Shown: positions 2,995 to 20,731 of the stretch, in pieces
Layout: every line of letters begins with the position of its first letter
Numbering within the stretch: the stretch's first letter is position 1
NCBI GenBank assembly: GCA_945872355.1
Contig: CAMBZU010000028.1
Span: 1 to 39,042 of the forward strand
Length of the DNA stretch: 39,042 nucleotides
From: Chitinophaga pinensis
GTDB taxonomy: Bacteria > Bacteroidota > Bacteroidia > UBA4408
Direction: 5' to 3'
The notes under the pieces: model-generated
What the model was told of the DNA's origin: nothing
The model's database searches: none
Seen by the model: the letters and a program-made list of their open reading frames with translations, nothing else
Position numbers and translations under genes: made by a program

Positions 2995-3137
2995 CCCAAA
3001 TTAATCAATAGGAGATTTAAAAAATCGAACTACTTGATTTAGTTGGGTGAATCCCGATATAGAAAATGTTATCAGATTTGTAAAAATCTGATTTACAATT
3101 TCTTTATCGTTTACGCATTTCTAATGCGTAATCTGGG
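2995..3137 (+). mobile_element. 143-bp MITE-like element, copy 1
   Basis: This non-coding insertion has ends CCCAAATTA (left) and TAATCTGGG (right); the right end read inward is CCCAGATTA, giving 9-bp terminal inverted repeats with one mismatch. It is flanked by an exact 5-bp target duplication TTCAA at 2990-2994 and 3138-3142. A second copy of identical length lies at 20149-20291 and differs at three positions. Inside are two perfect hairpins: ATCAGATTT/AAATCTGAT at 3071-3092 (loop GTAA) and TTACGCAT/ATGCGTAA at 3111-3131 (loop TTCTA). It holds no open frame of useful length, so it must be moved in trans. This copy sits three bases beyond the stop codon of the M1 peptidase gene. The transposase family is unknown to me. 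Confidence 0.85.
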
Positions 3138-6617: not shown

Positions 6618-7163
6618 ATGAGCAGAAATTATAAATTTCATAATAAAGAAGGCATTTACTTTGTAAGTTTTGCAACAGTATTTTGGATAGATGTTTTTGT
6701 TAGAAGAGTTTACTTTGATTATATAGTTGAAAATTTGAATAATTGCATTGAAAAAAAAGGAATGATTGTATTTGCATGGTGTATTATGCCCAGTCATTTA
6801 CACTTAATGTTTAAATCTACTATTCAAGCACCACATGATTTATTGAGGGATTTTAAAAGTTTTACTTCAAAAGGAATAGTAAAAAAAATTCAAGAAAATC
6901 CTCAAGAAAGCAGAAAAGAATGGATGTTAAATAGCTTTAAAAAAGCTGCATTAAATAATTCAAACAATACTTTAAATCAATTTTGGCAACAACATAATCA
7001 GCCCATTGAAGTATGGAGTAATGAAGTAATTGATCAAAAGAAAAACTATATCCATCAAAACCCAATTGAGGCAGGGTTTGTAGAAAATGATTATGAATAT
7101 TTATACAGCAGTGCGAGAGATTATGCTGATATTAAAGGATTAGTAAATATTGAGAAAATTTGA
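6618..7163 (+). CDS. REP-associated tyrosine transposase (IS200-like Y1 family, RAYT)
   Basis: This 181-residue single-strand DNA transposase looks complete for its family. The HUH motif is H60-L-H62 in IMPSHLHLMF, and the nucleophile is Tyr144 in KKNYIHQNPIEAGF. The N-terminus SRNYKFHNKEGIYFVSFATV and the YSSARDYA segment near the C-terminus are typical of a large Bacteroidota subgroup. Domesticated RAYTs nick and join REP hairpins; they do not usually carry IS605-type ends. Candidate REP hairpins flank it (6529-6550, 7183-7198). It is alone on the plus strand between two minus-strand genes, which fits insertion as a single-gene cassette. The reading frame is intact, with both motifs in place, so activity is possible. 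Confidence 0.9.
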   Translation: MSRNYKFHNKEGIYFVSFATVFWIDVFVRRVYFDYIVENLNNCIEKKGMIVFAWCIMPSHLHLMFKSTIQAPHDLLRDFKSFTSKGIVKKIQENPQESRKEWMLNSFKKAALNNSNNTLNQFWQQHNQPIEVWSNEVIDQKKNYIHQNPIEAGFVENDYEYLYSSARDYADIKGLVNIEKI

Positions 7164-19976: not shown

Positions 19977-20430
19977 TTATTTTAGTTTTCTTTTTTTAGG
20001 GTTTTGACGATTTGAAAAAAATGAAATTATCTCTATCTGGTTTTTAAAATAGCGATAGTATAAAGTATTATGTTTGAGTATAACAACGCTTCGAATTTCT
20101 TTTTCTATAGCTGATACTTGAAATAAATTAGGATTTTGAGAGATTAAACCCAAATTAATAAATAGGAGATTTAAAAAATCGAACTACTTGATTTAGTTGG
20201 CTTAATCCCGATATAGAAAATGTTATCAGATTTGTAAAAATCTGATTTACAATTTCTTTATCGTTTACGCATTTCTAATGCGTAATCTGGGTTAAACTAA
20301 GTGTTTCTTCAAGTTTTAAAAATAAAACACCCAATTCTTTTTCTGTCCAGTTTTCTTGAAGATAATCAATTGTTTTTTCTAATTCTGCTAACGCAAAATC
20401 TGTCCAAAGGATTTTAAAGCCACTTTTCAT
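19977..20430 (-). pseudogene. parE/relE-type toxin gene, split by the 143-bp element
   Basis: The toxin reading frame starts at 20430 (MKSGFKILWTDFALAELEKT), overlapping the antitoxin gene by 17 bases. It runs 46 codons to TLSL and is then broken by the element at 20149-20291, whose sequence adds TQITH and a TAG stop (20275-20277), leaving a 51-residue peptide. The rest lies beyond the element: ISQNPNLFQVSAIEKE ... VILKHNTLYYRY ... IEIISFFSNRQNPKK, ending with TAA at 19977. Removing the element and one TTAAA copy joins the halves in frame as a 101-residue protein, the usual ParE size, including the C-terminal NTLYYR and FFSNRQNP motifs of the superfamily. The truncated product lacks the C-terminal strands and is unlikely to be toxic. 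Confidence 0.87.
20149..20291 (+). mobile_element. 143-bp MITE-like element, copy 2 (inside parE)
   Basis: This copy has the same length and ends as the copy at 2995-3137. There are three base differences, all in the left half: one near position 12 and two near positions 53-55 of the element. It is flanked by the 5-bp duplication TTAAA at 20144-20148 and 20292-20296. The hairpins at 20225-20246 and 20265-20285 are unchanged. Both copies lie in the same orientation relative to the window. Since the interrupted gene is otherwise undamaged, this copy's boundaries are defined to the base, apart from the usual ambiguity of the duplication. Confidence 0.9.
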
Positions 20431-20614
20431 ACAATTTCCTTGCTTTTGAATGTGGATTTAGTTTTCCTGCATTAGCCTCGTTTAAGCCTTGTTCAATAGC
20501 ACTTTTTTCATCAGCAGAAATTGAATTCCACCAATCTTTGTTTTCAACTTTTCTTAATTCGATAATTTTCTCAATTGTAGCTATGTCCTGAACTGTTGAG
20601 AGCCATTGAATCAA
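20414..20614 (-). CDS. Antitoxin-like protein of a ParE/RelE-type TA pair
   Basis: This small protein has 66 residues if started at TTG 20614. The sequence IQWLSTVQDIATIEKIIELR, then DWWNSISADEKSAIEQGLNEA and a basic, Tyr-rich end (ARKLYEKWL), resembles small Bacteroidota antitoxins found directly before ParE-type toxins. It overlaps the toxin start by 17 bases, the usual antitoxin-first arrangement. The start is doubtful: the only in-frame candidate after an upstream TAA is TTG. The bases just before (ATAACAAAAATTAGAATTG) could be a decayed ATG start with one extra A in the A-run. So the antitoxin may be slightly truncated at the N-terminus or no longer well expressed. The C-terminal part that would bind the toxin is complete. 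Confidence 0.6.
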   Translation of the reverse strand: MIQWLSTVQDIATIEKIIELRKVENKDWWNSISADEKSAIEQGLNEANAGKLNPHSKARKLYEKWL

Positions 20615-20731
20615 TTCTAATTTTTGTTATTTAAAGGTACAAATTATTTTCAATATTTATTTTAATGATTAGAGAGTGAATTGAAAAGCAAGGTATATTG
20701 GATATTTTAGCTTGAATGATTTAAATTGAAA

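What the first reader, a model, noticed from the sequence alone, without database searches (positions are those of the whole stretch)
19977..20430. ParE toxin gene cleanly split by the mobile element; removing the insert restores a 101-residue frame
Seen: the toxin N-terminal 46 codons lie right of the element and the last 55 codons left of it, both on the minus strand. Deleting 143 bp plus one TTAAA copy rejoins them in frame with no stop or frameshift. The two halves together have the length and the C-terminal NTLYYR and FFSNRQNP features of ParE/RelE toxins. Inference: the insertion is recent because the dead half shows no decay. It disarms the toxin while the antitoxin gene is left in place, a natural example of mobile-element capture of a toxin-antitoxin locus.
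Basis: partly seen in the sequence, partly recalled or inferred. Interest (0 to 1): 0.7.

Follow-up and report, generated by a model that had tools for sequence, protein, structure and literature searches.

The report
Tiny transposon splits a ParE toxin gene
A 143-base non-coding mobile element of the IS1380 type, present in about 38 copies in this Bacteroidota genome, has landed inside a ParE-type toxin gene and cut it in two, which is real but an ordinary gene-inactivation event, and the neighbouring antitoxin gene also looks damaged.

Summary
The insert is a 143-bp MITE (window 20149-20291) flanked by a true 5-bp target duplication, TTAAA (20144-20148 and 20292-20296). About 38 near-identical copies lie in the same genome; 25 of 32 with both flanks have matching 5-mers, including TTTAA, TTCAA, ATAAA and ATAAT. 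The toxin halves were not joined: aligned separately to intact homologues, the N-half covers residues 1-46 and the C-half continues from the same leucine. Intact homologues pass the Pfam ParE_toxin cut-off. New here: 1.4-kb elements with the same terminal repeats encode an IS1380-family transposase (NCBIfam 256 bits, cut-off 180); a same-genus relative is flanked by TTTAA on both sides. None was found in the window's own assembly. Three corrections apply. The antitoxin has no ATG and lacks roughly its first 9-11 residues, so 'left in place' is doubtful. Absence of stops is weak evidence of recency; near-absence of the element from three congeners is better. 'Capture' overstates it: the toxin-antitoxin locus is missing between the same two genes in three congeners, and the MITE later broke it. 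No empty-site allele was found. Ordinary inactivation; low interest.

The parts
20149..20291 (+). 143-bp non-coding MITE core, CCCAAATTA...TAATCTGGG, imperfect terminal inverted repeats (13 of 20), strong internal hairpins
   Evidence: (fold z -7.2)
20144..20148 (.). left copy of the 5-bp target duplication TTAAA
20292..20296 (.). right copy of the 5-bp target duplication TTAAA
20293..20430 (-). N-terminal half of the ParE-type toxin (46 codons); its ORF runs on 5 codons into the element and stops at 20275
19977..20147 (-). C-terminal half of the ParE-type toxin plus stop codon; no native start
20414..20626 (-). cognate antitoxin body (70 codons from the upstream stop; 66 aa if TTG 20614 is used); native ATG and first 9-11 residues missing; overlaps toxin start by 17 nt
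2995..3137 (+). second MITE copy in the window, TTCAA on both sides

Best explanation
A ParE-type toxin-antitoxin pair, probably gained in this lineage between a glycosyltransferase gene and gcvT, was inactivated when a 143-bp MITE transposed into codons 46-47 of the toxin gene. The MITE has no gene of its own; an IS1380-family transposase acting in trans most likely recognised its ends, cut a TTAAA target with a 5-bp stagger and produced the duplication. The disrupted gene can only yield a 51-aa N-terminal fragment lacking the conserved C-terminal half, so no active toxin is expected; the antitoxin, no longer needed, then lost or is losing its start. Shown: insertion, target duplication, copy number, homology of both halves, IS1380 elements with the same ends. 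Inferred: mobilisation in trans, loss of toxicity, order of events.
For: About 38 copies; duplicated 5-mers varying in step on both sides; halves contiguous on intact homologues; homologues hit ParE_toxin above cut-off and ParE crystal structures; IS1380 transposase in 1.4-kb elements whose right terminal 20 bp are identical to the MITE's; same-genus IS1380 element with similar ends and TTTAA on both sides; congeners have glycosyltransferase and gcvT adjacent without the toxin-antitoxin pair.
Against: No IS1380 transposase in the window's own assembly, though several contigs of that assembly end inside MITE copies and repeats may be missing. Three other 1.4-kb elements (L124, L157, L160) do not have matching direct 5-mers. 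The left end of the MITE matches the IS ends less well than the right. No empty-site allele was seen.
Confidence: 0.88

Rival explanations
1. The insert is a REP/BIME-type hairpin element moved by the REP-associated tyrosine transposase encoded at 6618-7163 in the window.
For: The element has two strong hairpins and a RAYT-like gene is 13 kb away.
Against: Y1 transposases make no target duplication (general knowledge); here the 5-mers vary in step on both sides. The right end is identical to those of IS1380-family elements.
Confidence: 0.04
2. The toxin was already dead or silent when the MITE landed, so the insertion had no functional effect.
For: The antitoxin start is missing, and the closest homologue found (G055, L062) has a truncated toxin without a detectable C-half, so these loci decay by other routes.
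Against: Both toxin halves are free of stops and frameshifts and retain the conserved W, Y, E, R and P positions of the family. Losing antitoxin before toxin would be harmful if the toxin was expressed.
Confidence: 0.15
3. The insertion is reversible: precise excision in some cells restores the locus, making it a switch.
For: A clean target duplication is present and the frame is retained.
Against: No evidence of excision was available; DDE-type insertion sequences are not generally known to excise precisely at high rate (general knowledge); the antitoxin start is missing, so a restored toxin would be poorly countered.
Confidence: 0.04

Closest known systems
IS1380-family insertion sequences (ISEcp1 is a member)
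   Same: Partner transposase belongs to the family by NCBIfam NF033539 and Pfam PF13701; 5-bp AT-rich target duplication, as reported for ISEcp1 (5-bp TATGA, PMC2887853)
   Different: The window element is 143 bp and codes for nothing; its target preference is TTAAA/TTTAA
Bacterial MITEs
   Same: Short, non-coding, multicopy, terminal inverted repeats and target duplications
   Different: This family was not found described in the papers searched; among the window's genome and three congeners only the window's genome has full copies
ParDE type II toxin-antitoxin modules
   Same: Toxin homologues match ParE_toxin (PF05016) and PDB ParE chains 5cw7, 5czf, 3kxe; antitoxin gene precedes and overlaps the toxin gene
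   Different: The antitoxin matches no curated family above cut-off; the toxin is split and the antitoxin lacks its ATG

Membership tests
MITE | short non-coding element in many copies | tested here: met
   143 bp, about 38 copies
MITE | terminal inverted repeats | tested here: met
   13 of 20 terminal bases, CCCA(A/G)ATTA outermost
MITE | target-site duplication | tested here: met
   25 of 32 copies match; permutation maximum 23 in 100,000
IS1380 family (as mobilising partner) | autonomous element with the same ends codes for an IS1380 transposase | tested here: met
   L124 and L157 transposases 256 and 257 bits, cut-off 180; terminal 20 bp identical to MITE right end
IS1380 family (as mobilising partner) | transposase present in the same genome | tested here: not met
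   no match in the own assembly, which is broken at repeats; present in same-genus G001
IS1380 family (as mobilising partner) | transposase moves the MITE | not testable with these tools
   needs a transposition assay
ParE toxin (PF05016) | profile match above curated cut-off | tested here: inconclusive
   neither half alone matches; four intact homologues, about 38-58% identical to the halves, do
ParE toxin (PF05016) | gyrase inhibition by the intact protein | not testable with these tools
   no biochemical test possible
REP element moved by RAYT | no target duplication | tested here: not met
   5-bp duplications present

The most novel reading that the evidence does not exclude
MITE insertion is a favoured route by which this lineage detoxifies an acquired toxin-antitoxin pair, with antitoxin loss following: a two-step domestication caught midway.
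Probability: 0.12. Interest if true: 0.4.

Novelty: new member of a known kind. Interest (0 to 1): 0.22.

Why it matters
It gives a clean example of a non-autonomous element breaking a toxin-antitoxin pair and ties a Bacteroidota MITE family to IS1380-family transposases. It warns against annotating the remaining antitoxin as part of a working system. It does not change general understanding.

Tried and rejected
Single halves against Pfam and NCBIfam: no family hit, so homologues were used instead. Rfam: nothing above gathering score. The right-end-only copy at G000:C3:77822-77866 looked like the end of an autonomous element, but upstream lies an ordinary 349-aa gene that resembles mutY. Other CCCARATTA elements in the genome gave no transposase. 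A first tabulation script returned nothing because of a bad BLAST setting and was redone. Searching congeners for an empty toxin site failed because they lack the toxin-antitoxin pair. Literature searches for an IS1380-derived MITE in Bacteroidetes or Flavobacterium, and for a MITE inserted in a toxin gene, found no direct precedent in the held library. RAYT mobilisation rejected because of the target duplications.

Full report
What was checked. The window holds, on the minus strand, an antitoxin-like ORF (20414-20626), a 46-codon piece starting at ATG 20430, and a C-terminal piece ending at 19977. Between the two pieces lies 143 bp bounded by TTAAA on each side.

The insert is mobile. A search of the window's own genome gave about 38 copies, most 93-98% identical to the window copy. 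Tabulating 5-mers on both sides of 32 copies gave 25 exact matches: TTAAA 16, TTTAA 5, TTCAA 2, ATAAA 1, ATAAT 1. Shuffling the right-hand 5-mers gave a mean of 13.4 matches and never more than 23 in 100,000 trials. The strand folds strongly as DNA (z -7.2). Most copies have no ORF of 60 codons or more running into them, or sit at stop codons; the window copy is one of few that split a gene.

What moves it. A pattern made from the element's right end found 1.4-kb elements in other Bacteroidota. They encode a 439-448 aa transposase that is IS1380 family (NF033539, 256-257 bits against a cut-off of 180; PF13701). The right terminal 20 bp of three of them are identical to the MITE's. A same-genus genome (G001) has a 1,399-bp relative with TTTAA on both sides. 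The own assembly has no such transposase, but several of its contigs end inside MITE copies, so a missing repeat is possible. A 5-bp AT-rich duplication fits the IS1380 family: ISEcp1 makes a 5-bp TATGA duplication (PMC2887853). Three of the four full-length elements do not show matching direct 5-mers, which is unexplained.

What was hit. The halves were kept apart throughout. Relatives carry intact genes of about 97-102 aa. The N-half aligns to residues 1-46 and the C-half continues from the same leucine. Intact homologues pass Pfam's ParE_toxin cut-off, and their profile finds ParE chains 5cw7, 5czf and 3kxe in the PDB. Neither half alone reaches any family.

The antitoxin. Its body is 63-66% identical to three homologues, but those begin with ATG 9-11 residues earlier. 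In the window the frame has a TAA just before QKLELIQW, no Met at all, and no ATG in about 90 nt upstream. Only TTG 20614 could start it near the expected place. It may be weakly expressed, N-terminally truncated, or dead. Because loss of antitoxin before toxin should be harmful, toxin loss first is the more likely order (inference).

Age. The window copy differs from the family consensus at 2 of 143 bases, like its siblings. At that divergence 306 neutral toxin bases would stay free of stops with probability about 0.74, so an open frame is weak evidence of recency. The element is absent or barely detectable in three same-genus genomes, which supports a species-level expansion.

Neighbourhood. 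In three congeners the glycosyltransferase and gcvT genes are about 70-80 bp apart with no toxin-antitoxin pair; the window has 1,011 bp there. The pair is best read as gained in the window's lineage, although loss in the congeners is not excluded.

Verdict. 'Recent because undecayed', 'antitoxin left in place' and 'capture' need correction. It is a new member of a known kind, of low interest.

Noticed in passing
window 2995-3137: Second copy of the same MITE in the window, with TTCAA on both sides.
   Followed up: yes
window 6618-7163: REP-associated tyrosine transposase-like gene (just under the NCBIfam cut-off, over the Pfam Y1_Tnp cut-off).
   Followed up: partly
L034 (G000:C39:12211-12361): Copy whose right-end hairpin loop reads TTAGAAA instead of TTTCTAA, as if the loop were inverted.
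   Followed up: no
L042, L043, L045 (G000): Diverged non-coding elements with related CCCAGATTACGC ends; L042 and L043 share about 165 bp at 75% identity, suggesting a second MITE family.
   Followed up: partly
L062 (G055:C26): Closest toxin homologue is truncated (open frame of 67 codons) and its C-half was not found downstream.
   Followed up: partly
L036 (G000:C4:1443-1610): Copy with a 15-bp internal insertion that contains a short palindrome (158-bp core).
   Followed up: no
L096-L175 (genome contigs): The 20-bp terminal repeat CCCAGATTACGCATTAGAAA occurs in many Bacteroidota, including Flavobacterium columnare, davisii and covae; many pairs lie 143-600 bp apart with TTTAA on both sides, so related MITEs look widespread.
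   Followed up: partly
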